In this document: in pieces, positions 9,222-56,381 of the stretch
Layout: each line of letters starts with the position of its first letter
How positions within the stretch are numbered: the stretch's first letter is position 1
Origin: Favolaschia claudopus
Taxonomy: Eukaryota > Basidiomycota > Agaricomycetes > Agaricales > Mycenaceae
DNA: 64,000 nt
Assembly (NCBI GenBank): GCA_037176885.1
Contig: JAWWNJ010000007.1
Location: forward strand, 2,914,001 to 2,978,000
Direction: 5' to 3'
Made by a program: the position numbers and the translations under genes
The notes under the pieces: generated by a model
The model's input: the letters and a program-made list of their open reading frames with translations, nothing else
Databases searched by the model: none
What the model was told of the DNA's origin: nothing

Positions 9222-9295
9222 ACCCATATAGTTGAATCTTTACAAAATATACTTGGCCCACCCAAACGTCTTTTGCAAAAACATCTGAACCTTCC
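9222..9295 (+). repeat. Left terminal inverted repeat, inner KDZ element
   Basis: Starts ACCCATATAGTTG and contains ACTTGG, ACCCAAACGTC and TTTTGCAAAAA. It aligns with the reverse complement of 21446-21520 over about 70 bases. Confidence 0.85.
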
Positions 9296-9768
9296 CAGCC
9301 ATCACTCACCTAAGGGTATGTAAGCGTATGGCACACCGGCATGGGTTGATGGGCCTTGAAAACTTTGATGTTGATGGCAAATGATGCCCTGATGGCGTCG
9401 GCGCCGCCAAAATCAGTCCGTTGCCCTCGGACTTTGTTGTTTGACGCTCGGAAATGCCTTCCGAGCGGATTGACGGCATCAAATCAAGAAAACATATCAT
9501 CAGCACAAAATGATGGGCCTCTTTTTCACTTCCCCCCACGCGGCTGGGCCGTTTACACGCAAGAAAAGCAAGATATACTGTATATACACCCCCTCCTCGC
9601 CTCCTCGCCGCCTCCTCGACCTATTTTCGCTTCAAAAGCCCTCCTCACGGGCTGGCGCTGGCGCTGGCGCTCCCGCTTCCTTCCTTCGGCCCTCCGGCGC
9701 TTCCTTCGCTCCGCCTTGGGGGGTGCAGTTAACATGGTACGTCGCAGTGAGCATAGGGTCGAATAGAA
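9296..9768. other. Subterminal region of inner KDZ element
   Basis: No convincing separate gene. A short palindromic tract around 9410-9470 (CCGTTGCCCTCGG, then CGGAAATGCCTTCCG) may be subterminal binding sequence. A minus frame at 9553-9735 rich in Arg/Glu could be a last exon of the D-type gene upstream. Confidence 0.4.
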
Positions 9769-12279
9769 CTCACGACATCTCGTTTAGGACCCAATTTACC
9801 TCCTCCACTGCCTCCGCCCATTCCTTCAGCTCCCTCTGGTCGGCATTTCCCCCCAGCACATCCCGCCACCAGCGTAAACAAATTAGAGCGTTGAGCAGGC
9901 CGTTGGGACCCGTCTGACTCGCCATCACCTTCCACTCGCCTTCCCCCGCCTGGACCAACCGCCGCCCATCATGCACCTTCTCCCGCCAGCTGGGATTCAG
10001 CTTCATCCACCACATCCACCACGTTGCGCTGAAGGTGAAGAGTTCTTTGATTGGGGGCTGAGGCCCACCAGTACGCGCTCGGGCGATCCATCCTTTGATC
10101 TCCCCTGGTCTCTCCTTCACTGCAGCCCCGTTTTTCTGTTTTTGAGGTCAGTTTCACCGCGCACGCATGCGATTTCATTTCACTTACCGGCCCTTTGAAT
10201 GCAGCCCTTTCCTCCCGCTTCCACCATGCTTCCACCACCTTATTCCACATCTCTCCCCCTTCGCCCGTCTCGAGAAGCATGCGTGAGTGCGGAGCCCACT
10301 TAGGAACCTCGACAAGCGCTGGGGCTGATTTCGGAGGCTCGACAACCGCAGGGGTTGACTTGGGAGGCTCGACAACCGCCAAGACCGACTCGGGGGCGCC
10401 GACAACCGCTGGGGCTGGGGGTGGGGACGCCGTGGCGGGTGCGCTGTCCGCAGGCGCTTCCGGGGAGGGCTTTGCACGAGCGCGGGTGACGGGTCGCGGC
10501 CGGGGACGATCCTGTGTAGGCGTTGGCGCCCGGTCTTCCTCGTCGTCATCCTCGCCGCTGCTGTCGTAGTCGTCGTCGTCGTCGGGGGATGCCGCGGCCT
10601 TCGTCTTTGTCTTTGCTCGCTTGGCGCGCGGCCCTTCGTCGCCGGACGCTGGCCGCTTATTCGCTGCTCGAATCTCCGCCATCATCCCTTGTACATCCTT
10701 CCTTATCCCCAACGCATCCAGCTTCTCCAACGCCATCGCCTTATTGTTCTCGCGGTTACGATAGAATTCGTTCATGTGGGTCAGCTCGAAGATGCGTTCA
10801 GTGCGCGAATTCGGCGTCATCGCCCGTACACCACGCAGCAGCGGCTCGCCCACCCCCGCCAATCGACCGAGCTTAGCAATCTCCTCGCTCTCCTCCCTAG
10901 CATCATCGTCGCCCCCCACCGATCGTCCTGCATCTTCGCCTTCTGCAGCTGCAGCAGCCACACCTTCCATTGGAGCTGCGGGCGCCTCATCGCTGGTCGG
11001 CGCCCGCGACTCATTATCGACGACAGTGTTATCGACGACAGTGGTACCGGCGTCGTTGAGTTGGGCAGCGGCGGGTAGGGGTGGGTCTGGCTTCTCTGCG
11101 CCGTCGGCGTCGCTGGGCTGTTCTTCGGCGGGAGCACGATTCACCGGCGTCGTCGGTCCTGTTGCGTGTGGTTCCGCAGCTAAGGAAACGCGTTAACAGC
11201 TTGGATGGAGAACGGAGGCTCAGGATGCTTACCTGCCGCGATGAGATATCGCATCCAATGGTCCATAATAACGCCTTTATAGCCGTGCGGGTCCCAAGAC
11301 GTGAAATCTAACCCTTCTTGCAGGCCATGGTCGCCCCTCAGCTTCCCATGGAGGGTGCGAACGTCGAAGCGTCCTTCAACGACCGTGCCGGTAACAAGCA
11401 GCACCTGGGAGCCCGTGATAGCGCGGATGGAATCGAGCAGGGGCTGCACCGTGACCGCAAGGCGGGTCCGAGCTCTGGATCCCTGTGAGTCTTCGTTCAC
11501 AACAGCCTCGAATTGCCACTTACTCTAGACGCGCGTCAGCGTCCTCTTCAGCCTCCGCGTCCGCACCCTCCCCATCCTTGAACTCCTCCATGGCTTCTTG
11601 ATACTCCTCCTCACCTCTCGCCCGATACTCCTCCCTTATCTCCTCTGGCTCTGCCTCCAACAGCTCACGCGCGATTATCGTGCGCTCCTTGATGGAATTT
11701 TGTCGACCCACAAGCTCGGGAAAGCGCTCCTTCAAAAGCCGGTTAATTTCTTTGTTTTTCTCGTCGTCCTGCATGTAGACTTGGTGCAGGGCAAGCCTTT
11801 TGGGGGCGCGCTCGTCGACGCGGCGTAGCTGCGAGAGCCACTTGCCAAAGGGGTTGACGCCGCCTTTGCCAGAGTGCCGCGCGTACGAAAACCAACGCTT
11901 TATTTTCTACGGTGCGTCAGCCAGCCATCCGATTTATCTCAACGCCAAAATCACTTACAGGATCCATCTTATCCTTGATGGCATTTTTCTCCGCCAACTC
12001 CTCCGGATTCAACTCTGAGTCCGCTCTCCCAAGACCCTCCAAGTCAGCCGGTGGGTCCTCGTTCATAGGCAGGTCCCACGGAAACTCAGCCCAATACTCC
12101 GCTAACAACTTCTTCCAGAAAGTGCGCGTCGTGCGATCGTCCGAAGCTTTGCAGTAGTCGGCTACTCGGCTTTGGAGCCACTCTCGTCGAGCACCACGGA
12201 AATCTCCTGGGTTTCCCCTCTTTTGGGGAGCGTCGTCGCCGTCTTTCTGGTTTTTTTTCTTCCTGGACGCTTGAGCCAT
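9769..12279 (-). CDS. Cassette gene D type (inner element): Trp-rich WWxWW-domain protein
   Basis: Spliced minus-strand gene; the start is the ATG at 12279. Apparent exons are about 12279-11957, 11908-11526, 11469-11231, 11179-10193 and 10133-9769, with short GT-AG introns. The first exons encode charged helices, including KIKRWFSYAR and APKRLALHQVYMQ, a pattern I associate with KDZ-linked hypothetical proteins of mushrooms. A compact segment LLVTGTVVEGRFDVRTLHG follows. The large exon holds a Pro/Ala linker with three VVEPPKS-like repeats and a basic KRAKTKTK motif. The C terminus has RPGEIKGWIARA, TWWMWWMKLNPSWR, and GPNGLLNALICLRWWRD. That last block also ends genes D at 28317 and 52519 and the fragment at 63283. 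Function unknown. Confidence 0.78.
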
Positions 12280-12867
12280 GGTAGGGGTGTAGGGTGGACG
12301 GGTCGCGAGTCAGCGAGGCAGAGGGTGAGCCGATTACGCCCGCCGCCACTTACATTTAGCTTCACTACTCTTACCTACAAATTTGTAACGCGCTCGCTTC
12401 AAATGTACCAAGTCCGTTTGAGCGTTTCTCAAATTTTCGACCAAGTCCACTTAAATCACGCTTGAGTTATGTACACGAAATGAATATATTTACGAGCAAC
12501 AAAAACACAATACATGAAATGTAACAAATCAGCAGAGACATAGATAGCGTAGCGGTAGTTGGGATACAAGAAGGGGGATAGGCGTCGCGGGAGTTGGGAT
12601 ACAAGAAGGTGAGATAGGCGTCGAGAAACAATGAAGAGGCTACAATGATAGAGGTGTGGGCAGGATGGAGAAGGGGCGAGGATAGAACAGGGGAATGCAA
12701 GATAGAGAAGAAGTGCGCGAGGAGAGGAGAGAACGGTGCGTAGCGATAGTCCAAGAGAACAGCAGGAGCAAGTAGCAACATGGATAGGAATGGGGGGGCA
12801 AGACGTAGCAGACGGCAACTAATTTACATACAGATTGTTCATGGTCCAAGGGGGCGCGGTGCTCCAC
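12280..12867. other. Intergenic spacer in inner KDZ element
   Basis: Between the D-type and C-type genes. Bases 12456-12818 give hydrophobic-looking minus frames only because of a purine-rich plus strand; I see no gene. Two copies of TTGGGATACAAGAAGG lie near 12558 and 12593. Confidence 0.5.
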
Positions 12868-13851
12868 CTACGCACGCCTCGACGGCCCCGCCGCAGGCTG
12901 CGAACGCTGCGAGTTGACGGGCTGCGAGGCCGGCGAGGGGGCCTCCAGCTCATGCATGCCCTCCAGGCTCATCTCGTCCACCGCCGACATGAGAATCATC
13001 ATGGGGCCGACGTTGGCCGAGACGGCGGCGCGGATGGCGGGGAGAGGGTGGTCGTAGATGCGGCGGCGCATGCCCATGATCCCCCAGCACAAGGGGCCGA
13101 ACTCGTTAGGCAAGCCGTTGTCGAGAGAGTCGAAGTCGAAGTCGGTGGAGACGTATTCAGCGTCGGGATCGCTGTCGATTTCGATGGGGCTGCGGGGAGA
13201 GCGAGGAGAGGAGGCCGCGGTGGACGTGAGGGAGGATTCAGTAGCGGCGGAGCTGGCCGGGTAGCCCGGGAAGATTGGACTGTGGGGAACAATGCGCAAA
13301 GGGGCGCGGGGCATGACGTAGGGCGGCAATGGTTCCGGCGACACCGACGAGGGGACCACGAAAGGGGAGCCGAGTTGAGGGCCAGCCGTGCGGGGTCGCT
13401 GCGGCGTTCGCGGGGGGTTGGGCACGCGATGCGCGTCAGGAACTCGCGCCGAGCGGCGGGACCCATGCCGCCAAACGGGGGTCGAAGCGGTGAAACCGTC
13501 GGGGAGAGTCGGGGTCGGGCAGCCGCCGCGATGATTCTCCTCGCAGTAGCGGTCCCAGAGGATCTCAACGCTGTTGGGTCCTTCCCAGGTCTTCGCGGCG
13601 CGCTGGTATTGACCCGAGTAGCCGTTCGTCTGTGCATTGGCATCCAACCTACCATTTACTGAGTTAGCAAAGAAAAAAACAAAAGCGACGACAGAGAAAA
13701 CTTACGGATTGGGGTAGACGCCTGTTGCGCGTCCCTCGAAGACGACGTGGTAGCGTTCGTTGGTCATGCGGTCGACCTGAACGGTGTCCTCGAAACCAGG
13801 GCGGGGGTAGTACGCAGGGCGACAACGCGTTGAAGCAGCCGAGGAAGCCAT
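12868..13851 (-). CDS. Cassette gene C type (inner element): RNase H1 N-terminal-like domain protein
   Basis: Two exons: ATG at 13851, donor GTAAGT near 13706, acceptor near 13648, stop at 12868. The first 80 residues contain YHVVFEGRATGVYPN, then NGYSGQYQRAAKTWEG and VEILWDRYC. This matches the layout of the RNase H1 N-terminal (caulimovirus viroplasmin-like) domain: a Tyr/Val-rich strand, GR..GVY, a GY(S/P) turn and a conserved Trp near the end. In RNase H1 that domain binds RNA:DNA hybrids. No RNase H catalytic domain follows; the rest is a Pro/Ser-rich linker and a helical tail. Parallel genes at 27150 and 51395 sit in the same relative place. Hybrid binding here is inference. Confidence 0.75.
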
Positions 13852-14051
13852 TTTGTTTTGCAAAAAGGTGCAAGAAAAGATTTTGGATTGTGGGGGGCGT
13901 TTTTTGGGAGGCAAAAGGATTGGGGCGAAGAGGAGTTGGCCGCCAGCGAAGCTATATAGTCCAGCACGCCACATTCCCGCGGTCTGGCCGCAGATATTAC
14001 TCAAGTGACAGGTTACCTTTACTCTTTACACTCACCACGCCTGAATCTTCC

Positions 14052-14721
14052 ATGGACGGGGAAAAGCGCGTCAAAAACGAAGAGCGGATGGTGGAGACAA
14101 GGTAGGATGGAGAGAAAATAACGGTGATCGATTGATTGATGTTTTTTTTTTAGCGAGATCACCGAAAACACACAAAATTCGGCCGACGTTGGCTTCGGCG
14201 ACCACGTCTTGACCTTCCCTCCTCCCCGTCCCATCCGTGAATTGCAGGACGCCCGCGACGTCACCCTCACCTTCCGTCCCATCCGTGAGATGTCCGCCGG
14301 CGTCCGTCAAGACCACCTCGAACCCTTCTTCCTCACCGGCCCCGACGAACACGAAAGTCTCGTTACCAACGAACGCCAAAATCCTCTCCAGCTCCAACCT
14401 TTCTTGAACCCAGCTCAGCGTGCGCTAGAAGCTGCTCGCCCTCGCCCTCGCGCCGACGGTGGCGACCCTCTCGCGCTGCTCGAAGAACTTTCCGGCGCAC
14501 TTCACGAATTTCTAGTCCCTCGAAGCGACCCGCTTGACCGCGTGGAAGCCGCCCTGGACCAATTGGCGGATCATGGGGAATTGACAGACGAGGAGCACGC
14601 AGCCTTGGTGAATCCCGACGCCATGTTCGCCGAAATTGACGAAGCCGAGCGTTCGTGGCAGCGCCTGCAGGCCGTTCTTCAGACTATTTGTGACGGGGCC
14701 CGCGTGCGTCGAAATGCGTAG
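14052..14721 (+). CDS. Cassette gene B type (inner element): small protein of unknown function
   Basis: Exons 14052-14101 and 14154-14721 with a 52-nt intron, about 205 residues. It is Pro-rich near the N terminus (LTFPPPRPIREL), with a helical C-terminal half (DPLALLEELSGALHEFL, DRVEAALDQLADHGELT, DEAERSWQRLQAVL) that could form a coiled coil. No known domain recognised. It is transcribed opposite to its neighbours, as the B-position genes are in the other two cassettes, although I cannot see clear sequence similarity between them. Confidence 0.65.
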
Positions 14722-15060
14722 ATTTACAGAGTACTATTACGCCGTATTGCGATAAATTGTTCTTGCTTTTGGAGTATATGAATTTGAAAAGAAATTGATT
14801 CGTTGTGTTACAACAGAGTATTTGAAATCAAGAATCGAGATACCAAGAAACCGTACATGAATACCAGGACATTAGTGCTAGGTTGGGAGTAGCCGCGGGG
14901 GGGGTAACTCAAGAAGCAGGCGTAGCGTCGCCGGGAGCCCTGAGATGAGCGAAATAAATCTCCGCTGCAAACGGTAGTGAAGGGGGTACGCACCTCGCAC
15001 GCCGCCTCAGCGCCTGACGCTTGCGCAGTAGTGCGCTGGCACTTCCCTGCCGGTCCAGTG

Positions 15061-15101
15061 CATCCTCCTCCTCCTCCTCCTCCTCCTCCTCCTCCTCATC
15101 T
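15061..15101. repeat. (CCT)n microsatellite
   Basis: An almost perfect run of about 12-13 CCT triplets immediately downstream of the A-type gene's stop. Confidence 0.9.
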
Positions 15102-15645
15102 CCCGGTTGTTCGCCGTCCCTCCTCCGCAGCCACGCATCGCACCCATGCTTTGAAATATAGCTCCTGTAAAAAATGAGTGCGACCCCTCTGTTGAGCGAC
15201 GCGTACGTACATCGCTCGACGATCCGTCTGGCGACTCGCTAAAGTCGACGCATGACGCCGTCGATAGCGCGCGTCAGAGGCGCGAGCGTTCCGACGATGA
15301 GCTTGACGCTCTTCGTCGGGCAGATCGGCGACGAGTGCGCGACGACTACTACGGATTGAGCGTACTGACGGCGCATAGGTAAGCAAAGAGACCTACCGCG
15401 CCATGCGTTCACGAGCTTTGGCTTGAAGAGCCGACTTGTTCTTTTCACGATATCGCGCCGCAGCATTGAGCTGAGCGACGGAAGATTTGCGGGCGGCGAT
15501 GCGGTCAGCGTTGACCAAATCTGACAGTCGGGAGCTGGGAAGGGTCAGCCGTGAATGTGAGGAGAGGGCAGGAGAGAGTAGAAGCTTACCTAGAGGTCGG
15601 ATGGGTGCCATCAGAATGAAATGAGGCTGGAATTGTCGGCGACAT
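15096..15645 (-). CDS. Cassette gene A type (inner element): small basic protein
   Basis: Start ATG at 15645; about four short exons with introns near 15590-15540, 15395-15365 and 15213-15165; stop just before the CCT microsatellite. About 150 residues, very Arg/Ala-rich. Key segments are AARYREKNKSALQAKARERM and DEERQAHRRNARASDARYRR. A bZIP-like basic helix is possible, but there is no regular leucine zipper. The same RERM/RYRER style occurs at the C-terminal ends of the genes at 24353 and 50244, which occupy the same cassette position. Likely nuclear and nucleic-acid binding (inference). Confidence 0.65.
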
Positions 15646-16063
15646 TGTGGACGTATTAGACGACTTGTAAAGCTAGCAGCGACATAAACGAGCGTTGGGA
15701 TATGTAGGAATGGTTTGGCGTCGAAACGGCGAAGATTGAGAGAGGTCGAGTTTTGAAGGTAGTGGTCGGGTCAGGAATCCATGTGTGGATGCAAGTCTTC
15801 GAGCCATTTCTCGACCAGACCATAAACTCGCACTTTATTTCTATAAAAATCCACAAAAATTCTGAGACCTACCAGGAGCACCCTCACCTCCACCTCAGGC
15901 AAGAGTTTGCATAATTGAGTTCGTCGCCGAGAGGTAGCTCGGTGTCCGCAGCGTTCGGCCTCTTTCGAGTTCGTCATACCATAACAAGTTCATCATATCA
16001 CAAATGCTATTATGTTAAGATTCAAAACGCAACGGCTAGTGAAAAGTATTGTGCGAGCGTATC
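15646..16063. other. Intergenic spacer in inner KDZ element
   Basis: Between the A-type gene and the TET/JBP gene. Only short minus frames of fewer than 70 codons; nothing recognised. Confidence 0.4.
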
Positions 16064-17908
16064 CTAAATTATCGAAACGGGTCCCTTCCAAGTAGTGTAC
16101 ATCTTAACACCTTCATCCCAGCGCCTCGCTCGATCCCGCTTCCTCCGTTCATGCTCCGCCGGCGATGTCGACTTTGACCTGTCAATGTCGGCGTCGGTCC
16201 GGAACTTGTTATAGACCCATCGAAAAAGTCCCGCTGGCGTGTATTGGGTGAAAGAGAAGCGCGTCTCATTGGGGCGAATCTTGGTGTTGGAATGGCGAAG
16301 GATGGCGGAGGGGATAAGGATTGTGGAGCCGGGCGGGAAGCGAATAACGAGCTTCAAATCCCATAGAACGAGGTGGCCGCCGAGGTCTGGATTATAATTG
16401 CCAAGCGCTGTGATGGCGCACCACCCCCACGCTAAATTGCGATAGTCGATGTGGGGGAAGGTGACCGTGGCGGGCCCAAAGTTGAAGGTGGCTGTGGAAA
16501 AGACGGACAGGCGCGGGAGGAAGTTGCGGGTGGTGCGTGGGTCGTGCTCACAAACGGCGCGGAGCTCCTTTTCGTAGAAACCGTGGAGCTGTTTGGCGAA
16601 AGCCATGAAAAGCACTGTCGGTCGTCAGGGAACGATGGGGGGCCTGGGTGGCGGGACTTACTGTTTGTCCAACCGGCGATGCGCTGAATCGACTGCAGCG
16701 CAAACAGGCTGCTCAAGATGAGCTGAATGCGGGCGCTGTGTGCAACATTTTGAGGGTGAGTTTGGCCGCCGCCCATGGAGATTCCAGCGGATTTGGCGGC
16801 GTGCGGACCTCGGCGTGGTACTGTTTCACCGCTGCGGGCGCGCCGCTTGCGAAGCCAGCGCGGTTCCGTGTAGATTTCGACGGCTGCAGCTTGTAGGTGC
16901 TGAGCGGCGTCTTGCGCAACCTCCTCATCCCAACTGCGCCCCGGCTGATCGTCGGGAAAGCCGCCGAGGCAGAGAAGAACACGGTTGTCGGCGTCGACGA
17001 CGGGGGTGGGCGCCCTTGGCTTACGATGAGCGGTTGTTGCAGTAGAAGAGCCGTGCGTACGTACCCCTGCCAATCCAGAACGTGCATGTCGGGCTCCGCC
17101 GCCATTAGCTCCTCCAGAGTATGCGCGCGGGGGTTCTCCTCAGTCTGGCGTACGGCTTGCCACCCCGACGACGCCACCGGCGCATGGAAAACGTCGCCAA
17201 GGCCTAGATTGAGGAATAAGGGAGCGGCGCGGCGGACTCGCACCTTGGCGATGTGCTTGAGTCGGGTACCAGCCTCCACGCACCGGCGTTGACGCTCCTC
17301 TCGCCGCGCCGCCCGCTGCTTGTCGTGTTTTTTCGCCAGGCGCCGAGCTTTGCCGTCGGGCGTTACGGCGGGAGGCCGCGGAGGGCGAGCGCAGCGGATT
17401 ATGGAGCCGGGCATGGCGCCGTCGTTTGTGGGAGGGGATGCGGTGGCTGCGGACGAAGTTGAGGCCGTCGATTTGACGCTGGTGCCTGGGCGTGCACAAC
17501 GGATGACGGAGCCGCGCATAGGGCCGTCGGATGTGGAGGAGGTCGAATTGAGGGAGGTATTCGCGGGCGGCGGGGGCTTGTGGGTTGGGCGGGGGAACAC
17601 GGGGGGTTGGGGCCGGGGACGGGGCGCGGGAACGGGGGTTTCCTCTTCGTCGCTATCTTCATCCGACTCGGCGTCAGAGTCCGCGGAGTCCTCACGGCGA
17701 GCAAGAAGTTCCCGCAGGCGGATGTGCGGTAGTTGAAGGGCGACTGCTTCAGAGAACGGGCTATATTCGGCTCCCGATCTCGTGCGCCCTGTGAGAATGG
17801 TGTCAGAAACGGCGCGACGTTGGTAGGTAGGGATTCGGTGATCCGCAGCTCCAGGGTCGGAGCCACAGAACGCCGAGAGGCAGAAAAAGACGTACTGGGT
17901 AGGGACAT
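16064..17908 (-). CDS. TET/JBP-family 2-oxoglutarate/Fe(II) dioxygenase
   Basis: Spliced minus-strand gene. The most plausible start is the ATG at 17908, with a tiny first exon spliced to GRTRSGAEYSPFSEA; stop at 16064. The N-terminal half is disordered and acidic (about 17700-17640) with Pro-rich repeats. The conserved middle includes FLNLGLGDVFHAPV, DWQG, PTPVVDADNRVLLCLGG and GISMGGGQ. The catalytic part shows the double-stranded beta-helix signature: FPHIDYRN (HxD iron ligands, about 16465), GWCAITALG, GGHLVLWDL, FPPGSTILIPSA, the distal His in LRHSNT, and the Arg of ETRFSFTQ that should bind 2-oxoglutarate. The family oxidises 5-methylcytosine or thymine in DNA, and in basidiomycetes it is known to be expanded with KDZ transposons. 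All expected ligands are present. Activity and substrate are not shown by sequence. Confidence 0.9.
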
Positions 17909-18396
17909 TTCTGAGGACGGGCGGGGGCAGAGGGAGGTAGGATTCGCGTTCCACAAAATGCAATGCTGTTTTTTTTGAAGGCTGGGGCCAAGACGTGAAG
18001 CAAGCGACGGGGAGATCCTTGAAGCAGGAGACGCATGGCCGTTGTGCGGATCCTGATAGTCGACGGGTGGAAATCAAGAGTAAATCAAGTGGAAATCAAG
18101 TGGATTCAAGTGGATTCTAAGCAAGCTCGCGAAACTGGACCGGGGTTTGCTGTGCCGTTGCTGTAGATTCAAACTTGCTTTCAGAACCAGATGTCCTTGC
18201 TGAGCGCATTTGGGTAGGTAATTGAGGATTAATGGTACTTAGACAGGGATAGAGGGAGGATCACAAGGAAGACGGGTACTTCGGTAGATTTCTGAGGCCG
18301 ATGTAACGCGTGACATCACACGGTCCAGAGCGCTGATCGACTCGTTCTAGCCCATCCGAATTCCCACCTCCAGCCGTCCGCCAAAATTTTGCGCGT
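17909..18396. promoter_or_regulatory. Divergent intergenic region between TET/JBP and KDZ transposase
   Basis: About 490 bases between two divergently transcribed genes, so it must hold both promoters. The direct repeat TCAAGTGGA occurs three times at about 18085-18115. No TATA box or operator that I can defend. Confidence 0.5.
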
Positions 18397-21149
18397 ATGG
18401 CAGAATCGCGCCCCCCGACCAAGCGTCGCGTCCCCACAACTAAACGTCCCGTCTTACGCGGAGCAAAGCGCGCCGCTGATGAATATGTGGTCAATACCTC
18501 CGTGGCCGACTTCATCACTCCTGCAATCGACGCGCCTATCAGGGCAATGGTGGAACGGCCGACGGCTGATCGTCGTCGGGTACAGTCAGAGATTGTTTCC
18601 ATTGAACCGCCATCTCCGGTAAAACGTGCCCGTATCCAAGCAGCAGCACCTCCCGATCCTCCCCCGTTCGTCAATGACGATTTTACTTCCGAGTCTGAAC
18701 CCCAAGGCATCAATGGCGAATTGTACGATATGGACTTGGGAGGGTTTTTTCTACGCCCACAATCTCCTACACCCCAAGCTCGGCAAAAGAAACTCTTTAA
18801 ACCCTCCGTATGTCATCTCATAATGCTGACTTGTGCTTCGTTTGACATGAAACCGCAGGATAAATCTCTCTATCATCTGCGTTCCCTGCGCGATGAGTAC
18901 CTTCGCGAATTTTTACGGCTGGATGGGTGCGGCGACGCCTCGGAAGACCTCTGCCCTCACTGCGGGATCCGTACCCCCTTCTTCCGCTGCCGCGATTGCC
19001 ACGACGGTCTTCTGTATTGCAAAGAGTGCTGTCTTGAGCTTCACGCCAGAAATCCACTGCACATCATAGACGTACGTTTGAGTGTTGGATCCCTCCACTG
19101 CTGCCCACTAATCCTCCTGTAGTCTTGGGACGGCAAACTCTTCACACGCACCTCACTGAAACACCTGGGCCTGCGAGTTCAGTTCGGGCATGCAGGCTGT
19201 GGCCGCCCGCGCGCAGGGCACGAGAGTTTTGTCGTCGTGGATGTCGATTACATCCACGAAGTGGCGGTGGATTTCTGTGGCTGCGAGCGGCAACTCGAAT
19301 CTGGCCATGAGCGCATCCAGCTCCTCCGCTACCGGTGGTTCCCCGCCACCCACGACCTCCCTCGAACGGCTTTTACATTCCGAGTCCTCGCATCGGTGGG
19401 GTCGCGTCGAGTACGCGTGAGATGGGGCCGGGCTCGCGAGCCGACGTTTTGGACGACCATTGGGCGTTCTGGAATTGGTGCAAGCTGATCACTTTAGGTA
19501 AGTATTCTTCTTGAAAGCGAATCGCAGGTCACTGACCATCTTTCACAGGGGAATTGCTCCGGAAACGGCTGGACAAGGCCAAGCGCGAGCGAGACATTCA
19601 GAAGGAGGCGTTTGAGGCTTTCACAGCGGAGCAACGTGAGCGAGTCGCGGGTTGGGAGAAGATGGCGCAGGAATATGAGGCGGACCCTTCCAATGCGAAG
19701 AATCCGTACGAGGTGACGACGAGCGGTATGTTGTTATCCTTTGTTCTCATGTGCAGATCTAACACATTCTTAGCCTTGAAAGAATCGGATGTGAGGCTGA
19801 AGCTGGCGGAGGAAGAGGCCGCTGACGCAGCGAGGGGCGTTCCGTCTCTGCACGACGTGAGCCCTAGCTCGTTCGTCCATAACGGCTTGGAGCTGGAAGA
19901 TCAGCAGTGCGTTTACTGAGTTTCTTTTTGCGGCTGCTTGCTGACTTCATTTTTTCCAAGGCGGCGCTTACGCATCCAGATTGAGCTCAAGAAGGCCGGT
20001 ACTACCACCCAGCAGATCGATATAATCGCGCTGCGACGAACCCTCAGCCGCGGGATCGTCCGTTTTCGCAAGTTGCAAGCCACATATTCGCCCGGGGCTC
20101 TTCAAGCTTTAGCGCGGCGCAGAGGCGAGGCCGAGGAGCTTCCCGAGACAACGCCGTTGATGCTGCCCTCTGCGTTGACGCCCGAGGAGCGGGAGGTGGG
20201 GTGTGTGGCAGGGGTGCAGCACATTGAGCAGCTCCTTCGAGACGCTCAATGTTCTGAGGCCCTGATGCGTCTTCGCAATCAACTTCACATCAAAAGCCGG
20301 TATTTCGACTATAAAGCCCTCCACGCACGCCATCAAGGGGCGAACACTCGAACTCGGACCCTGGTCGCTAGAAACGAAAGCAAGATTCGCCTCCATTCGG
20401 AGAAGTACCAGGCGGCGTGGGAGGCGCTGCGTCTGCTGGCCGGAGGGGATGTTTCGAAGGTTGGATGGAGGAGATTGCGGAAGGAAGACGTGAGGACCAT
20501 GGAGGACCCGGAAGAGCTGACGAAGCGCCAGGCGCTGCGTGCTCGGCAGGACGCGACGCGTCAGGAGCGGATCAGGCGTTTGCAAGAGGAAGGGGAGGAT
20601 GTCCGAATGCACGAGGAGGAAGAAGGCAATCAGGGCGAGGAAGCGGAGGTATCTGCCAACCCAGCGGAGAACAGAAGGGAGGTGTCGTGGATTTGGACGA
20701 TGGCTGGTTCCACGGGGTCGGACGCCGAGCTGGAGGATGCGCTGCGCATCGAGTGGACGAAGGCGCGCGCTCGAAGCCGGCGTTGGGCGGAGGAAGTGCT
20801 GCTCTTGAACGAAGAGCACCGCCGTGCTCTGGTTTCTTTCGAGCATGAGGCTGTCAGGTGGGAGGCAAGGGCAAAGGAGGTGCCGGTCGGGAGCGTGGAG
20901 GTCGGGTTTGCCCAGGGCGCCATTGCGTACGCCCTGAGGCAGGCGGCAATGTTCCGAACGCTGGCGGCTAGGCTGGAGGTCAGCATGACTGAAATCCACC
21001 GCGGCCGCGGTCGCAAGCGTATGGCTGCATTGCCATCAGCAGCGGAGGGGGAGGAGGAGGAGGCGGGCAGCGACGACGACGACGACGAAGGCGCCGGCGG
21101 GGTAGCGAGCGACGAAGAGTTCTTCATGGGGGGCGAGGCTGAGGAGTAG
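18397..21149 (+). pseudogene. KDZ transposase with deleted catalytic core (inner element)
   Basis: The N-terminal part reads from ATG 18397: a disordered region, then the CxC2-type cysteine cluster (CPHCGIRTPFFRCRDC, YCKECCLELHARNPLHII), then WDGKLFTRTSLKHLGLRVQ, GHESFVVVDVDYIHEVAV and LLRYRWFPATHD, ending near FTFRVL at about 19390. The sequence then jumps to the C-terminal part, STREMGPGSRADVLDDHW, in a different frame. The region with the catalytic DANF, YDIAC and GExxExxW motifs (about 1.2 kb in the outer element) is missing. The C-terminal part runs through several exons to 21149 with an acidic tail. The deletion is out of frame, so this copy cannot make an active enzyme. Confidence 0.85.
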
Positions 21150-21445
21150 CGTGCGTGGCTGGGGAGGCGGGCGGGCGGCGGGATACGGCGGGATGAGTGG
21201 CGGCTAAATAGCCGCCTATAGCGCTTATTAAATATATAAACATTTTCGGTATCATTTTTTGACCGTAAGCGCCGTACGCGCTTCTTTCTCAACGCATCAT
21301 TTTTGATGCCCACCTCGGCATACTGAGCCATTTGATCTGAAATAAAATCTGATTGACTTGCCGGCGGCTACATGGTGTGTACAAGATGCCGGAGAAGCCG
21401 GACATACGCTATAACAGTAAACAAGGACAGCTTTCCACTATATAT
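21150..21445. other. Spacer between transposase and right terminal repeat, inner element
   Basis: Nothing coding recognised. It includes a GGCGGCTAAATAGCCGCC palindrome at about 21200 that could form a hairpin, perhaps a transcript end or subterminal site. Confidence 0.45.
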
Positions 21446-21520
21446 AGGTACCGGCATATTTTTGCAAAAGACGTTTGGGTTGCCCAAGTACATTTTGCAA
21501 AAACGCCACCAAATGGGGTG
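21446..21520 (-). repeat. Right terminal inverted repeat, inner KDZ element
   Basis: Reverse-complement partner of 9222-9295. The core TTTTGCAAAAGACGTTTGGG is at about 21460-21479. The target duplication CTCCTCCCA follows. Confidence 0.85.
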
Positions 21521-23462: not shown

Positions 23463-23678
23463 AGTCCTGCGTTTTCATTTTTTGATTTCCTTCCAAGCAA
23501 ATACCAGAGCAAACTCGCATGACATTGACTCAATCGCGTACAAAAAACAACTCAAAGTAAACAAAGGGTAAACTGCGCGACGGTGCCGCAGACGAAGCCA
23601 CGCGCAGAGAAATCTTGACGCGAGAGCTGCATGAAGGGCGGCTCTCACACGCTGGCGCGGCGACGCGCTTTCTCCTCC

Positions 23679-24249
23679 TCAGTGCGGCGCACCGGACGGG
23701 TTCTGGCGGACGAAAACAAGTCCAGTGTCGTCTGGAGACGCGGAGGCGGAACGATGTTGGTGTAGGGAGCATAATGGCGAGCGATCCCCGCCAGCCTGGG
23801 GCGGTACGCCGGGCGGGAGCTCTGGGTACTTCGACTTGACGACAGGACGGGGCGGTCGACCATATGGAAGCATGCGCGCAGTCTTCCTCGCCGCACGGTT
23901 GGACGTGCTCGCCGCCGCATTCTGTTCGGCGTCCATGTTGCGGAGGGCGGTGAGGACGCGGGATGAGCGCACATTGGGGGGAGAGCCGGGGGGAGAACCA
24001 GCAATCGTTTTCATCCCTGTCCCTGACGACGCTGTCAGCACGCATCAAAAACGACCACATTGCACAACGCACCGTTCGCGTGGCTCAAAACGAGCTCCCC
24101 GCGATCGTCCAGAATCCAAGGATTCTTCACTGAAGAGCCCTCGAACTCGGTCATAGAGGCGCGCTCTGCACAATCGGTCTGAGTAAAGAAAGAGAGAGAA
24201 ACGACGGGGAGATCTTACCGAAAACGTTTTCTTTCTTCGCCGAGGTCAT
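23679..24249 (-). CDS. Small Pro/Ser-rich protein (outer element), unknown function
   Basis: Start ATG at 24249 (MTSAKKENVF), spliced to exon 2 with FEGSSVKNPWILDDRGELVL, and again to a last exon with NMDAEQNAAASTSNRAARKT and a Pro-rich tail ending about 23679. GT-AG introns fit at about 24219-24175 and 24077-24035. About 165 residues, no known domain. It lies between the transposase and cassette gene A, the position held by TET/JBP in the inner element, but shows none of the dioxygenase motifs. Confidence 0.5.
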
Positions 24250-24352
24250 GGGGGAAGAGAACAAGATGTGTTACGCCTAGTCACACTGTCTTTCGGTATC
24301 ACATGCCAACAAACCTCTTTCAGCCTCTTTCCCCTCGCCCGCACTTTCCGCG

Positions 24353-26227: not shown

Positions 26228-26266
26228 TAGCCGAGAGTACATTCTGAATTGAAATAAAATGCACTC

Positions 26267-27079: not shown

Positions 27080-27149
27080 GGTGGAATGGGGGGACGAGGT
27101 GAGACGGCGAGGCGTGGGAAACTAAGAAGATCTTGTCTTGCACACCATC

Positions 27150-37045: not shown

Positions 37046-37046
37046 A

Positions 37047-39449: not shown

Positions 39450-39494
39450 CCCGTGGAAACATATATCAAGTTGCGATGTAGGATGAAATCTCCA

Positions 39495-49451: not shown

Positions 49452-50580
49452 ATGAGCGAATTCGGCCACCGTAATTGTTGTCTCACCACAATCCGCACCG
49501 CTATCAGCAAGATCTGTCCTTACAGAGTCAAGATTCCCTCCCGTGGCGCACTCACCGGTCAGTGTGTTTCCTCGCCGTTCCGCCGATTCTGAGCGCGCAA
49601 TCACTCGACTTCCAGTATAAACTGTGCTTCTCCACTCAACAAATTATTCCTCAAGTGCTGGAGCAGGATGGGCCTAGGACCCCGGGGGATCTGCGATATT
49701 CGATGGCGTGGCGCACTCACCGGTTAGTGAATCTGAGAATATTTCGTTGATTTTGAGCTCTAACTTGACCTGTGTTGACTACAGGGATGACAGCAGTTCG
49801 TGGGGGACCTAAGAATTCGTATAGATTTACAAATTCTGTGAGGTGTTCACCCGAAACTAGATTTACTCAGTCATGCGCACTTCAGGCCCTACCGAAACTT
49901 AGCACTTCAAGAGGACCCAATACTTGCACCACTTTAAATTCTGAATTCGCTTTCAATTAATTTATATCACGTCTAGGAACGTATCTAAACATCATAGGAG
50001 GCTCGTAGTGGGTTGCTCTGAAATCCAGGACTTGTCAAGGCCATCGCAAGACATGCTCTCGCAAGGTCGGAAGCAGCGGCCCGGCCATCAATATCACCTC
50101 TGGGCGATTCAGCACAATGGATCAATTGAGTGCTCGGAAACAGCGCTTGAAATACCTGCTGCGGACCACAAGATATCGCAGGTATCGCATGCGGTCTGTA
50201 CCGAGATTTCTTCCGTTTTGACGACGAATTCTGACTGGTTTGTAGCAATGAGGAAAAGCGGCAAAAGCAGACTCGCGAGCGAATGGCTCGCATACGTGCC
50301 AATGCCACGGAGGAACAGCGAGCTCGTCACAGGGAGACCCAAGCTCGATACAGAGAAAGGTGGTGTGAAAGACGAGGAATGGTCCGCTTACATTGCTGAT
50401 CTTGACCTGACAAGGCATAGGGAACTAATCGCACAACGAGATCGTCGAGCTGCCATTGAGAAGAATTCACAGCAGGGCAGGAGCACCAAGCCCCGTCCTG
50501 GAGGTCGTAGATATGCGTCGCCTGCTATACACGCCGTGGAAGGAGAGGAAAATGACGAGGATGACGATTATATAGACTAG
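49452..50580 (+). CDS. Cassette gene A' (third KDZ element), start uncertain
   Basis: The last two exons are clear: about 50243-50367 encodes NEEKRQKQTRERMARIRANA and EEQRARHRETQARYRER, and about 50415-50580 encodes HRELIAQRDRRAAIEK and an acidic end. This matches the A-gene basic region. Upstream pieces share WRTHR before a GT donor (49708-49730) with the outer element. An exon set from about 49452 is only a guess. Confidence 0.5.
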
Positions 50581-50654
50581 ATACATTTGAGTGTATCTAG
50601 CTACATTCCTCTAATGTCCAATTGTTGCTCGCCATCTGCCGCTCCCATTTCTCT

Positions 50655-51207
50655 TTATTCCGCCGCGCAACAAGAGCTCTCTCTTCCATTTCCCGCACCA
50701 TTGCCTTCCGGATCCGTCGTCGTTTCGCCTTTCCTGGAATTTTGGGATAACGAAGTGGGGGCCGCCCAGTCGCCGCTCGGAGAACCCCATGCGAGGCTGG
50801 TGGAGGAGGGGTTGGAATAGGAAGTGGTGGACCAGACGTGGGTGGTCAGCTCGGGGCTGAAAGGTGCGTCATTCCAGTCCGTGGAGCCCCAACCTCCATC
50901 GTCGTCGGCAGTGCCCCATCCCCCCGCACTGAAACATTTCCTCTGCTGTTCCCCCACCCTGCGCCACTGCCCCACTCCAGCTCCGTACCGGGAGGCTGCA
51001 CCGCGAGTGCATGTCGATGAAGCCATTCCTCGTATTCGCGCTGCTGGCGAGTGGCGCGGCGAATGGAGGCGACGGCGGCGGCAGCGGCGAGACGTCCGCG
51101 CCAGAAATTGCGCTGCGCGACAGCCTCGGCGTGACTGGAGACCTGACTTCGATCGCGATAGGGCCAGAGGCGGTGGGTCTCCGCTTGCTCAGCCTGAGCC
51201 TCCACAA
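50655..51207 (-). CDS. Cassette gene B' (third KDZ element)
   Basis: Minus frames at 51205-50846 and 51026-50655 overlap. They give FWRGRLAAAAAVASI, then after a shift GWGTADDDGGWGSTDWND and FSPELTTHVWSTTSYS. The Gly/Trp/Asp repeats resemble gene B at 26267, and orientation and place agree. Intron positions or a frameshift between the two frames could not be decided. Function unknown. Confidence 0.5.
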
Positions 51208-51394
51208 CTATCGCAGTCAGTGAGGCGAGCGCAGGATTTTGAAGGTGTAGATACCTTCGGGACTTGACGTCTCACAAAACGTGAGATGGCGACGCTGATA
51301 ATTGAAGGTACGCCACTTGAAGGGAGGAAGAGACATGGGCACTCACGTGATGGCGCCATCGATCATTCCCTTTTGCCTCTTACCCTCGTCTCCC

Positions 51395-52316
51395 ATGGCT
51401 CCTTCCTCCAGCGAACTCACGCAAATCAACCTCTCGGCGGAGGACATGCGCCTCGACGATCGTGGGGTGAAGGATCCAGCCTTTTATTGCCTCCCACCGC
51501 ACCATTTCGACGGCCCCCCACCTCTCGCTCGAGGAGGAAGATACCCTCTTCACCTCGTCACGCAGGGGCATCGTGTGGGCATCTTCAACAACTGGTATGT
51601 GTGTGAGTTCCCCAGCGGAGATTCAGCTGATTGGGGAGGGGAATAGGCCAGAAGCGAAGCTGAGTGTGACGGGCTACCCCGACAACAGTCATCAAGGATG
51701 CTACACCGAGGAGGAATGTGTCAACCTCTGGCAGCGTCTCTGCGTCTTGGGGGTGCACCCACACCCCGTGGATCCCGCCTTCTTTCGTCCCCCGACCGCC
51801 AGCGCCTCGGGATTCGTCCATACGTCGCCTCGCAAATCCGCTCGGCCGGCCTTCAAGCAAGATGAGACGGGGGGAGCATCTCCAGAGCTGCTGGCGGATC
51901 TGTGAGTCCCCTAGCCCCGGTATTAAAGCTGTGGATGACACATTATTCAGGAAAAAATTTTGCCGGCCGATTCTGCCCTCACCCACCCGCCCCTCCTCGT
52001 CGGTAGCTCCCACTGCGCCCTTTGCTCCACGTCCAGCGGCGTCGCCGGCGCGTAAGAGGCATGTTAACTATGCGATCCGCGGAATGGGTATGTGTCTAGT
52101 AGCGCGTAAGTGTTCTTATTCTTGCTGTGCATTGTGTTTCTCATCAAACTTCGAGTCAACGAACAGCTGAGAGGTACGAGGAGTTGCAGAGCCGGGGGGA
52201 GGAGCCCGACCTCCTCATCACCCGCGACCTTGCCAGCGCGACTTTTTTTTGCTGTTGAGGAAGAGGAGGTCGTCGAGGAAGAGGATGTCGTGTCGGGGAA
52301 GCGGCGTGCGGTGTGA
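51395..52316 (+). pseudogene. Cassette gene C' (third KDZ element): RNase H1 N-terminal-like domain
   Basis: Start ATG 51395; exon 1 ends PLHLVTQGHRVGIFNNW, exon 2 (from about 51650) has KLSVTGYPDNSHQGCY and EECVNLWQRLC. These are the RNase H1 N-terminal-like blocks seen in gene C. Later exons give RHVNYAIRGMG and RYEELQSRGEEPDLLITRDL. In the last exon a run of eight T at about 52242-52249 shifts the frame; seven would keep FFAVEEEE in line with gene C. This may be a true defect or a homopolymer read error. Confidence 0.68.
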
Positions 52317-52518: not shown

Positions 52519-55366
52519 ATGCCTCGCGCCGGTTATGCAGCACGCAAGAGACAACGCCTTGGCCTCCCGCCCGCCAAACCTGGTCGCGTTCCTTGGGTCC
52601 GTGGTTCCAAGGTCAAGTTCTTCGAGTCAGCAAAGGACGACTACCTAGCAGCAGCAGAGATCAAGGGGACGGGCGCTTTTTACGAGAAAATGGCGCAACG
52701 GTACTTGAAGAAATACGGATACAAGCTACGCCTGGAGGATGATTTGGAGGAGGGCGTGGACGTTGCGAGCGACGTCGACTCGGATGAAGATACTGACGCG
52801 TTGCCTGCAGCAGAGTCGAAGTCGCGGTCGGTCCTTTTCAAAAAATTGAAGGGGGTGAGTTTGCACGTTGCTGTTAGAAGAGTGAGAGGCTTACATTGAA
52901 CGTCGCGTCAGAAAATAGGGTCTTGGTACAACACTCGCTATGGAGGGTCCGTCGAAGGGAAAAAAAAGAAGACGACCTCTTTCAAGAAGGTTTTCGACAA
53001 GCCTGAGCTCGACCCGCCCGCGCCCGTGAAACCCCGGCTGATCAACCATTACACGCATCGTTTCTATAACCAACGCATCAAGGCCCATGTGGAAGCAAGA
53101 TGGGCAGTAGAGTCGCGTCGCCCGGACCCACCCAAATTGATTGTGTTCCGCAATAAGGTGATAAGGGAGTGTTGGGAGGCCGAGAGCGAGGCCTTCAAGG
53201 CGGAAGTGACGGAATCGCTCGAAAAAGAGCACAAGGCGGCAATGGAGGCATATGCTGTGGCGTCTGCCGCTGAGGCACCGACAACTCCAGAAGAATATAA
53301 CATGTTCGTTACCCTTGGTTTGGAGGCGACTTGAGAAGCTAATGATGTTATTACAGCGCGCTTAACAATGCTGGGTACTATCTCCAGCCCTTCGCCGACG
53401 CCATCGCCGAGCGATTCGGGATGAACGTAGCAGTTTTGCTGTGCGGACCGGTGGCCGACCGCGGCGGGAACATTGAGATGAGAAGGTGAGGTTTTCAACA
53501 AAATTATGTGCACCCATTTGCTCACTTAAGAGAATAGTGTGCACTCGGGGATGAGCGGCGGACTGGTGCCGCGTATCTGGAGTGATTACGACCGGGCTGG
53601 GTTCGACGCGTGTCAGAGGAGCTTCGTCAACTTCTCGCACGAATGTTTCAGTAAGTTCTTTATAATTTATGAGAGAACGAGAAATTTACAACGGGGTACA
53701 TTGAAGGTGAGGAACAATGCCGTGCTCGGAGCCTGACTGAGAAAACACCGACGGCACCGTCGTCTGGAGCGATGGGGGACGGTATTCCCGCAGATGCCTC
53801 TTCCTCTTCATCCGCCCCGCCGAACGCCACCGTTGTACCGGCAGCCTCCGCATCCGCGCCGCCGAACGCGACGGCTGTAACACCACCTGCTACATCGACG
53901 CCGCCGACCGGGCCCGCTGTAACACCACCTTCTACATCCACGCCGCCGACGGCTGTAACGCCACCTTCTATATCCACGGCGCCGACGGGGACCGAGGCGA
54001 CACCTGAATCGGGATCTGCACCGCCGCTGACGTCCTTCAACGACCCCAGCTTCGGTGACGGCGACGAGGGCAGAATGCTGCGGGGCGACGAGTACGACTT
54101 CAGTCAAATGATGCCGCCTGACCTATGGTTCTCTGCCGAGGACGTTGACAAAAGAGTTGGGCGTGCTTTGAGGGCCGAGCTGAAGAAGCTGGATGTGCTG
54201 GACTACGCGCGAGAAGTAGGGGACCTGTCCAAGATGTCGGACGAAGAAGTGGACCGCGCAAACGATCGCGCGCGCGATCAACTTTTCTTCGATCGTTTAG
54301 CGCGAAATATACCAGCGACGAAGGCCATGGAGCTTTCTTCTGATCCAGAGGACAACGGCGACGAGCGGCCGACAGTGCCTACGGGAACGACTGGGGCTGC
54401 CGCTGGAAGAATGCGAGCTACGAGATCGGATACCGTGCTAAGCGGCGGTGGGGATGGCAGCGACGGCCCGCGAAGCACAGATGGACGCGACGAAGTAAAC
54501 AACGACGAGGAGAGAGGGGGAGAAGGTGACGTGTCAGGGAAGGAGAGTTGGTGGGACGTCCAAACGAAAGACTCGTGGCCGGAGGAGCTGGTGAATGCGT
54601 TCGGAGGATTCTCCCGAGGCCGTGTGTGGGGAGGAGAAAGCTGGCAGACTTGCATCAGTTTGCTGCTCGAGATGCAGAAAATCAACGGCTATCAGGAGAA
54701 GGGAGCGTTGAATGTGCCGACGAAGAAGGACGAGCGACCGGTGGAAGTCGGGGACTTCATGCAGCGACATCGGGTGTGGGGGTCGTCGTTCCCGATTAAG
54801 GGTGTTACCGGTCCGAGGGACGTGGACAAAAGCTTCGCGAGTCGATGGTGGACGTGGTGGGAGGTGGGGCAACCGCAGAGCCGAGTCGGCGAGGATGGAT
54901 GGGCTAGTCCGGCGAACGTCGATTCAGACGATTGGTCAGAGATGAGGCTGCGTTACGGCCGTAATGGAATGCTGCTGTACATTGGAGGATTATTGTGGTG
55001 GGGCGAGGCAGCGGCAAGCAAGGAAGGAGCAGAGAAAGAGATTCTGTTGGCGGACTGGCGTCTGGCGGTGGAGGACGTGAAGGAAGTGTTGAGTGAAGTC
55101 GTGAAGCCCGTGGGTGAAAGGTACGTGAAGATGGCTTCTGCCTACACGAGTCTGACGAGAATCTGATATATTAATATCAAAGCCGCGCGCCCAGCGGAGA
55201 CGGTGAGACGCCGCGAGTACAGGTGTCCAAGATCAGGTCGTCGACAAAGCGGAAGGCAGGAGGCAAGGACAAGGAGAATGTGGTCCCCAAGTGAGTATCA
55301 GATTCCTTAATAAGTCACCATTGAAGTCGCTGATGTGTTATCAGGCGTCGGCGCGTCAAGCAGTAG
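52519..55366 (+). CDS. Cassette gene D' (third KDZ element): WWxWW-domain protein
   Basis: Paralogue of the gene at 28317. Exon 1 (52519-52854): MPRAGYAARKRQRLGLP, WVRGSKVKFFE, YLKKYGYKL and acidic DVASDVDSDED. It has an extra intron (to about 52911) absent from the outer copy. Then PPAPVKPRLINHYTHRFYNQ, NNAGYYLQPFADA, FGMNVAVLLCGP and GLVPRIWSDYDRAGFD. The linker is Ala/Pro/Thr repeats (TPPTGPAVTPPST) instead of polyproline. The C terminus has RWWTWWEVGQPQSR and GRNGMLLYIGGLLWWGEAAA, then two small basic exons ending at 55366. No enzyme motif. Confidence 0.8.
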
Positions 55367-55613
55367 TGGTATAGGTGGTAGATGCAAGTTGGGGCTGGCT
55401 TCAGGTGGCGCGCGATTCGTACAATGTGTGGACTTTGTCGTTTCGTCGGACTTTGTCGTTTCGTAGAAATATGTCAGAAATATGCCGAATATATGCCGAT
55501 TATGTCTTAGTGATTTCACGAGTATGGGTTTATGAGAAAAGGCTTTTGATAAATCGTGCTATAGTGGTAGGGTACATGGGAAGAGGTGAGCGAAGGGGCT
55601 TAACCCTACTATT

Positions 55614-56241
55614 CTAACCTAGTCTGTGAAGCGAAGATATTGAGAGAATGAAATAAAGGAAGAAATCAGCGACATACCACTTTTGAGGGACGGCCAGAGC
55701 GGTGATCCTCAAACTCTGCGGCGTCCTCGACGCGACGGCGCTTGGGGAGAGAGCCCGTAGAGGCATACGACACAGGCGGTGGTGGGCGCGAAGCAAGGGC
55801 GCGGAGGAGGGGTGCCCGTAAGCGAGTAATTTCGAGGAGGCCGCTGGCGTTGCGCAGCATGAATTGGAGCCGGTGAATCTTGAGTATGTTCCAGTTATTA
55901 ACGTGCTCGTCAAGGGCCGGTCGTCGCGAGCCGACGCCCATTTGGTGAGGGGTGGGGGGAAGAGGATTGCTGGCAGCCCAAGCAGCGCAAATGGGCTCGC
56001 TGTGAGTGACGAAAGTGCCGGGGGGGATGGTAAGAGTGTGCCGCCGGTCTGTGGTATCGTCCGAGCGGTCCTGGGGGGCAGCGGTTATGAGCCGCATCGC
56101 TGGGGAGCGGGAGGGGGAGCGGGAGGGAGGGAAATAAACAAGGAACAACAACGTACCGGTTTGATCAGTGCCACCGGCAGGCTGCGGCACCGTCCAGCTA
56201 CCGGCAAAATGCGCAACCTGATGCCGGGGCGCCAAAATCAA
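55614..56241 (-). CDS. Possible small gene near right end of third KDZ element
   Basis: A 191-codon minus frame (56241-55666) with GVGSRRPALDEHVNNW, RLQFMLRNASGLLEITRLRA and a basic KRRRVED motif; a last exon to about 55614 is possible. No domain recognised, and the outer element has no equivalent here. It could be chance. Confidence 0.3.
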
Positions 56242-56275
56242 TCATTTTCGGTTGTTCTGCCAAATTGGGTAAGTC

Positions 56276-56381
56276 CGAGGGTACATATATATAAGGTACA
56301 TATTGGTTGGACTACCGGTATGTTCCTTTATTCCAATGTTCCCCCTTATTATAGTAGGGTCTATTGATATAAAGGTACATC
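56276..56381 (-). repeat. Right terminal repeat of third KDZ element (diverged)
   Basis: Aligns with the outer element's right end (31504-31616): GGGTACA start, TAAGGTACA, a GGACTACC block, GTTCCTTTA, then GATATAAAGGTACAT at the end. It is diverged but keeps spacing and the internal palindrome pattern. The other end is not in view, so no target duplication can be checked. Confidence 0.65.

What the first reader, a model, noticed from the sequence alone, without database searches (positions are those of the whole stretch)
9222..56381. A conserved ordered cassette (A-B-C-D) is carried by three KDZ elements
In the outer element the order from the transposase outward is: variable gene, A (basic), B (opposite strand), C (RNase H1 N-terminal-like), D (WWxWW). 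The inner element has the same order in mirror image, and the third element (49.4-55.4 kb) repeats it. A, C and D are related by sequence blocks; B by position and orientation. This suggests the genes are element functions kept by selection, not random host cargo. It is my best candidate for an undescribed system.
Basis: partly seen in the sequence, partly recalled or inferred. Interest (0 to 1): 0.9.

Follow-up and report, generated by a model that had tools for sequence, protein, structure and literature searches.

The report
Mushroom transposons sharing an accessory gene cassette
Three related jumping-DNA elements in a small mushroom carry four extra genes at the same places and in the same order, three of the four recognisably alike, and the longest shows signs of selection, so they look like working equipment of the element, perhaps for dodging the fungus's silencing of foreign DNA, and not random passengers.

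Summary
The window is from Favolaschia claudopus (Mycenaceae). Two nested KDZ elements have exact boundaries: outer 7412-31616 (inverted ends, 8-bp TSD) inside a gypsy pol gene, inner 9222-21520 (inverted ends, 8-9-bp TSD) inside the outer transposase; both empty sites restore the interrupted frame. The third copy (about 50.2-56.4 kb) shares the outer right terminus; no left end or transposase was found. Each carries A (basic), B (opposite strand), C (RNase H1 hybrid-binding domain) and D. D is one gene of about 840 aa; the WWxWW stretch is its C-terminal part. D relatives were found in 21 Mycena species; 16 of 84 D models carry C directly upstream and one also carries A before C. D shows purifying selection between outer and third; B is not conserved in sequence; the inner transposase lacks its core. 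Genome-wide linkage to KDZ could not be tested (genome search did not complete). Best reading: accessory genes of a large Zisupton-like transposon lineage. A role against RNA- or methylation-based silencing is plausible but inferred. KDZ elements with extra genes are known; I found no description of this module in few searches.

The parts
7412..31616 (.). Outer KDZ element, 24,205 bp including the inner one (11,897 bp without it and one TSD copy)
   Evidence: 94-bp inverted match of the ends, 8-bp TSD, gypsy ORF restored across the empty site
7404..7411 (.). Outer TSD, left copy (CTTCTACC)
31617..31624 (.). Outer TSD, right copy (CTTCTACC)
7430..7522 (+). Outer left terminal inverted repeat, 81% to the right end; begins 18 bp inside the TSD; holds the 16-bp unit GGTACAWTGCWTTAAA as an inverted pair
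31504..31597 (-). Outer right terminal inverted repeat, begins 19 bp inside the TSD; same inverted pair of units
9222..21520 (.). Inner KDZ element (12,299 bp), inserted in the outer transposase gene
   Evidence: Inverted ends 9220-9284 / 21456-21520, TSD CTCCTCCCA at 9213-9221 and 21521-21529; transposase frame open across the empty site
21530..23478 (-). Outer transposase, N-terminal part: CxC2 (22756-23187) and KDZ core (21665-22727)
   Evidence: Pfam
7692..9221 (-). Outer transposase, C-terminal part beyond the inner insertion
   Evidence: similar to inner 19920-21146 (29%, E 5e-18); open across the junction
18337..21149 (+). Inner transposase remnant: CxC2 at 19123-19485 directly followed by the C-terminal region; KDZ core missing
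16067..18095 (-). Inner variable gene (extent uncertain); 16067-16624 looks like a 2-oxoglutarate dioxygenase (HxD...H...R read by eye; TET/JBP-like, below threshold)
   Evidence: Pfam Tet_JBP E 0.11, 2OG-FeII_Oxy_3 E 0.04, both below cut-off; single-sequence model uninformative
25843..26224 (+). Outer A, basic protein, two exons (partial model)
   Evidence: matches third A, E 9e-8 and 1e-7; alignment
26267..27070 (-). Outer B, opposite strand, W/GW-rich with basic C-terminus (model uncertain)
   Evidence: model; composition
27183..28187 (+). Outer C, RNase H1 N-terminal (hybrid-binding) domain protein
   Evidence: PF01693 E 1.5e-7, 32 bits against cut-off 21
28317..31051 (+). Outer D, about 840 aa, 5 exons, no stops
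14909..15611 (-). Inner A, basic protein (model uncertain)
14052..14721 (+). Inner B position: open frame on the opposite strand, not similar to the other B genes
12868..13851 (-). Inner C, diverged hybrid-binding domain
   Evidence: PF01693 19 bits, just below cut-off 21
9770..12279 (-). Inner D, 760 aa, 5 exons, 23% to the other two D proteins
50235..50577 (+). Third A, two exons (partial model)
50597..51336 (-). Third B, opposite strand, GW/WG-rich, basic C-terminus (model uncertain)
51395..52255 (+). Third C, hybrid-binding domain protein (model partial)
   Evidence: 56% over 66 aa to outer C, E 2e-21
52519..55294 (+). Third D = public protein R3P38DRAFT_2763051 (P0001, 837 aa); its last residues lie beyond 55294
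56227..56386 (-). Right terminus of the third element, homologous to the outer right end (about 70% over 102-121 bp)

Best explanation
A-B-C-D is the inherited accessory gene set of a lineage of large (about 12 kb) cut-and-paste KDZ transposons with inverted ends and 8-bp TSDs, in these features closest to Zisupton. The CxC2/KDZ transposase at one end moves the element (insertion shown by inverted ends, TSDs and restored empty sites); the cassette sits between the transposase and the far terminus and travels with it (shown for two elements). D, and probably A and C, are kept because elements that carry them spread better (selection shown for D between outer and third, inferred for A and C). 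Most likely mode of action, inferred: C uses its RNase H1-type domain to bind RNA:DNA hybrids or dsRNA from the element and, with D as a large helical partner encoded next to it and A as a basic nucleic-acid binder, keeps the element expressed against RNA- and methylation-based silencing; some elements add a TET-like dioxygenase for the same end.
Against: No genome-wide test of linkage to KDZ transposases (genome search did not complete). The outer ends match only from 18-19 bp inside the TSD. The anti-silencing role is shown by no result: D has no recognised family or fold, B is not conserved in sequence, and the lysine pair of the human hybrid-binding domain (recalled) reads mostly Arg-Gly in C. 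Foldseek E-values for C are weak (0.27 at best; the domain is only about 50 of 1106 residues). dS between outer and third is saturated, so no ratio could be given; for the inner pairs NG86 gives dN 1.05 and 1.01 with dS 2.2 and 3.6, near saturation and unreliable. The outer and inner D are not themselves among the public proteins found.
Confidence: 0.62

Rival explanations
1. The cassette proteins are parts of the transposition machinery itself (end binding, synapsis, target choice), as TnpA is in En/Spm (recalled), and not anti-silencing factors.
For: Each outer end holds an inverted pair of a 16-bp unit found at no other place in the 64 kb (4 of 4 hits at 7458, 7505, 31506, 31554; the pattern was written from these sites), the kind of site an extra DNA-binding protein could use; A is strongly basic; divergence of ends and D goes together.
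Against: No DNA-binding domain is recognised in A or D; a hybrid-binding domain in C fits RNA or hybrids better than duplex ends. The transposase alone could bind the units.
Confidence: 0.27
2. Passive cargo: host or foreign genes captured once by an ancestral element and merely carried.
For: B is not conserved in sequence and the gene next to the transposase differs between elements; related genes in Pleurotus were published as captured genes (PMC4289320, passages and section 14 seen).
Against: Outer and third D open at 47% identity, 0 of 500 random runs without stops; same order in other species.
Confidence: 0.08
3. Only C and D matter: a two-gene unit, in some species perhaps one protein; A and B are neighbours of little importance (not exclusive with the best explanation).
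For: 16 of 84 models join C to D in frame; only 1 clear and 1 doubtful model includes A; B is not alignable with confidence.
Against: A is recognisable in all three copies and in M. galericulata at the same place; fused models may be annotation read-through.
Confidence: 0.2

Closest known systems
Zisupton / KDZ (Kyakuja-Dileera-Zisupton) DNA transposons
   Same: KDZ transposase core, CxC2 cluster, inverted ends, 8-bp TSDs (Zisupton: TIRs and 8-bp TSDs, PMC12730594, passage)
   Different: Carries an ordered A-B-C-D set; that paper treats TET/JBP as the accessory gene and 'RNase H' occurs 0 times in its main text. Tree position of the transposase not tested
TET+ Kyakuja of Agaricomycetes (Kojima 2025, PMC12730594)
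   Same: KDZ element with an added gene; a TET-like dioxygenase is perhaps present in the inner element
   Different: Two Kyakuja families characterised there have 7-bp TSDs and no TIRs; here inverted ends and 8-9 bp
helpo1.3 long copy of Pleurotus ostreatus (Castanera 2014, PMC4289320)
   Same: 10.7-kb insert with TIRs flanking capD and capF; capE carries PF01693 and capF an RNase H-fold domain called a putative transposase
RNase H1 hybrid-binding domain / caulimovirus transactivator-viroplasmin
   Same: PF01693 and fold in C
   Different: No RNase H catalytic domain reported by Pfam; own conserved C-terminal motif NFAIRGGG...RYLELQRRGEEPD
VANC-type anti-silencing proteins of VANDAL elements (recalled, from no call; the search failed)
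   Same: Works-like comparison only: transposon-encoded accessory protein against silencing
   Different: No sequence relation tested

Membership tests
KDZ DNA transposon | KDZ transposase domain PF18758 | tested here: met
   Outer element, E 7e-20 and 1.5e-32, above cut-off. Not found in the inner pieces scanned (19536-19916 not scanned); no transposase-like frame seen by blast near the third copy
KDZ DNA transposon | CxC cysteine cluster with the transposase | tested here: met
   CxC2 in outer and inner; intact P. ostreatus KDZ are also preceded by CxC2 (PMC7641404, passages)
Zisupton | Terminal inverted repeats | tested here: met
   Outer (match starts 18-19 bp inside the TSD) and inner; third only one end
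Zisupton | 8-bp TSD | tested here: met
   Outer 8 bp; inner 9 identical bases, so 8 or 9
Zisupton | Transposase falls in the Zisupton clade | not tested
   No reference transposases at hand
Kyakuja | 7-bp TSD, CA..TG ends, no TIRs | tested here: not met
   features from PMC12730594 section 3.2
TET/JBP dioxygenase (inner variable gene) | Tet_JBP domain above cut-off | tested here: inconclusive
   12.1 bits against cut-off 34.9, E 0.11; no dioxygenase among PDB sequence matches up to E 1
RNase H1 hybrid-binding domain (C) | PF01693 sequence and fold | tested here: met
   Outer C 32 bits, cut-off 21; inner C 19 bits, below; fold match of P0014's C to 3bsu
RNase H1 hybrid-binding domain (C) | Binds RNA:DNA hybrid or dsRNA | not testable with these tools
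   Needs a binding assay
Argonaute-hook (GW/WG) proteins (B) | Excess of GW/WG dipeptides | tested here: inconclusive
   Outer 9, shuffle mean 4.3, p 0.013; third 5, mean 1.0, p 0.002; inner 0. My splice models keep the W-rich exons; a second count, W between small or polar residues, is not significant (p 0.30, 0.18); an antisense frame elsewhere also reaches 5

The most novel reading that the evidence does not exclude
The cassette is a multi-protein counter-silencing island of a eukaryotic transposon: C masks RNA:DNA hybrids or dsRNA, B is an Argonaute decoy by GW/WG hooks, a TET-like enzyme rewrites 5-methylcytosine, and A and D tether the complex to the element, so that one element attacks several steps of RNA-directed DNA silencing at once, much as anti-CRISPR islands do in phages.
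Probability: 0.15. Interest if true: 0.9.

Novelty: new variant of a known kind. Interest (0 to 1): 0.62.

Why it matters
KDZ elements are common in mushrooms (36 truncated or seemingly intact in one Pleurotus genome, PMC7641404), and the D relatives found here are all named only 'hypothetical' or 'uncharacterized' in what I saw, apart from a few labels such as 'Ribonuclease H1 N-terminal domain'. A conserved gene order with a hybrid-binding protein and a selected 840-aa partner gives these proteins a common context and a testable role, and may help explain how large DNA transposons persist in genomes with RNA interference and cytosine methylation. It also suggests that some published 'captured genes' of fungal helitrons may be parts of inserted KDZ elements.

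Tried and rejected

Dropped or limited: the profile search scored only the 7,993 candidates sharing most words, so its restriction to Mycena and Favolaschia is no proof of absence elsewhere; P0002 was found but is not in that list, hence 84 in all. Pfam was run on 81 of these 84 as alignments (P0002, P0003 and P0004 left out, though P0002 was scanned). 79 of the 84 went into the structure alignment (P0003, P0004, P0050, P0068 and P0074 left out). Not all 16 C-D models hold the whole of C: P0075 has mainly its C-terminal motif and P0032 only its first part.

Literature: some searches answered; others failed, so 'no description found' rests on few searches. Iyer et al. 2014 (PNAS), which defined KDZ, is not held and is recalled only; it may mention such genes.
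Full report
Source. A protein encoded at 52519-55294 and a little beyond matches R3P38DRAFT_2763051 of Favolaschia claudopus at 100%, family Mycenaceae. The window is fungal DNA rich in transposons.

Element boundaries. The outer element runs from 7412 to 31616. Its ends share 94 bp at 81% in inverted orientation, beginning 18-19 bp inside the target duplication, with CTTCTACC directly repeated at 7404-7411 and 31617-31624. Taking out the element and one copy of the repeat restores a gypsy pol reading frame (RQAKAYNKGRRPVEEIEEGDLVLVNPHSLEL), which shows a precise insertion. The inner element runs from 9222 to 21520, with 65-bp ends at 82% and CTCCTCCCA repeated at 9213-9221 and 21521-21529; without it the outer transposase frame is open across the site. 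A shared word of 8 or more bases between random 50-base stretches is not rare (52 of 2000; 9 or more, 16 of 2000), so the proof is the restored frames, not the repeats alone. The terminal unit GGTACAWTGCWTTAAA, a pattern written from these ends, occurs four times in the window, all at the outer ends, as an inverted pair in each. The third copy ends near 56386 with about 70% similarity to the outer right end; its left end and a transposase were not found.

Transposases. The outer gene has CxC2 and both halves of the KDZ core and a C-terminal part beyond the inner element. The inner gene has CxC2 followed within about 60 bases by the C-terminal region, without the core, so the inner copy cannot move by itself now.

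Cassette. Outer, left to right: A+, B-, C+, D+. Third: the same. Inner, mirrored: D-, C-, B+, A-. D is one gene: 5 exons in my outer and inner models, and the public 837-aa model for the third (none of 12 models reproduced the public one at its very end). The inner D aligns along its length at 23%. A shares the blocks RERMA..R and ARYRER. C has the RNase H1 N-terminal domain in outer (32 bits, cut-off 21) and, just below cut-off, in inner (19 bits), with a second short conserved motif. B is W-rich with a basic tail in outer and third; the inner B is not similar to them. Beside the inner transposase lies a gene with a 2-oxoglutarate dioxygenase look, TET/JBP-like but below threshold; its H, D, H and R residues were read by eye.

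Other species. The profile search gave 83 proteins, all Mycena or Favolaschia (capped candidates); with P0002 they make 84 from 21 Mycena species and F. claudopus (species counted from the names). F. claudopus has four more D proteins, on contigs of other lengths (P0007, P0016, P0017, P0025); the outer and inner D are not among the listed proteins (best match of outer D 62%). 16 of the 84 carry C, or part of it, directly before D, from 9 Mycena species; PF01693 is found in 13 of 81. P0045 of M. galericulata carries A (TKLRPKTRQY block), then C, then D; P0030 of M. crocata may too, weakly. These joined models may be annotation read-through, but they show adjacency and strand. A possible case outside the family is the 10.7-kb insert of Pleurotus ostreatus with capD, capE (PF01693) and capF (RNase H fold) and TIRs flanking capD and capF (PMC4289320, section 14 and passages read); that this is a KDZ element is my inference.

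Selection. Third against outer D, 751 codons: divergence 0.41, 0.37 and 0.65 at codon positions 1-3, amino-acid identity 47%; random change at half that divergence gives 18.1 stops on average, and none of 500 runs is free of stops. Against the inner D all positions are nearly saturated (0.58, 0.55, 0.67 and 0.58, 0.53, 0.70), so the inner copy adds no clear selection signal beyond its open frame. My outer and inner exon models were built to be open, which helps them; the third follows the public model except for its last exon, which the comparison leaves out. Saturation prevents a dN/dS value for the outer-third pair; for the inner pairs the values (dN about 1.0, dS 2.2 and 3.6) are unreliable.

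Mechanism. Shown: the elements inserted precisely and carry the cassette. Supported: D is kept by selection and is linked to C. Inferred: C binds hybrids or dsRNA; the set protects the element from silencing. The second most likely reading is a direct role in transposition. B as an Argonaute hook is the boldest part: GW/WG excess has p 0.013 and 0.002 in two copies and is absent in the third, a stricter count is not significant, and the B homologue search could not be made.

Novelty. KDZ elements, CxC clusters and TET-bearing KDZ are published (PMC12730594: abstract, section 3.2, part 1 of section 4, figure legends and passages read; PMC7641404: passages). I found no description of the A-B-C-D module in searches; four more searches failed. 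Verdict: new variant of a known kind.

Noticed in passing
19123-21149: Inner KDZ transposase has lost its catalytic core between CxC2 and the C-terminal region; the copy is now non-autonomous.
   Followed up: yes
2842-3141 and 48912-49211: A 300-base direct repeat, 99% identical, 46 kb apart; one copy abuts the left side of the third cassette. Perhaps two copies of one LTR or short element.
   Followed up: partly
37591-43775: Probable LTR retrotransposon with 98% identical long repeats; reverse transcriptase in 40501-42195.
   Followed up: no
31609-35435 and 6949-7599: Gypsy-like pol with a chromodomain end, split by the outer KDZ element: a triple nest (gypsy, KDZ, KDZ).
   Followed up: yes
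45486-47849: Long inverted repeats (arms 188, 98 and 73 nt) around about 1.4 kb; looks like a fold-back or TIR element.
   Followed up: no
57395-58749: DDE_3 transposase piece, Tc1/mariner-like, just right of the third element.
   Followed up: no
3218-6505: A 1096-aa open frame on the minus strand without a Pfam match up to E 0.1.
   Followed up: no
2182-2724: Tandem repeats of 110 bp (2 copies) and 90 bp (3 copies), the latter within an open frame.
   Followed up: no
23500-25800: Stretch between outer transposase and A: only low-scoring gene models; perhaps transposase N-terminal exons.
   Followed up: partly
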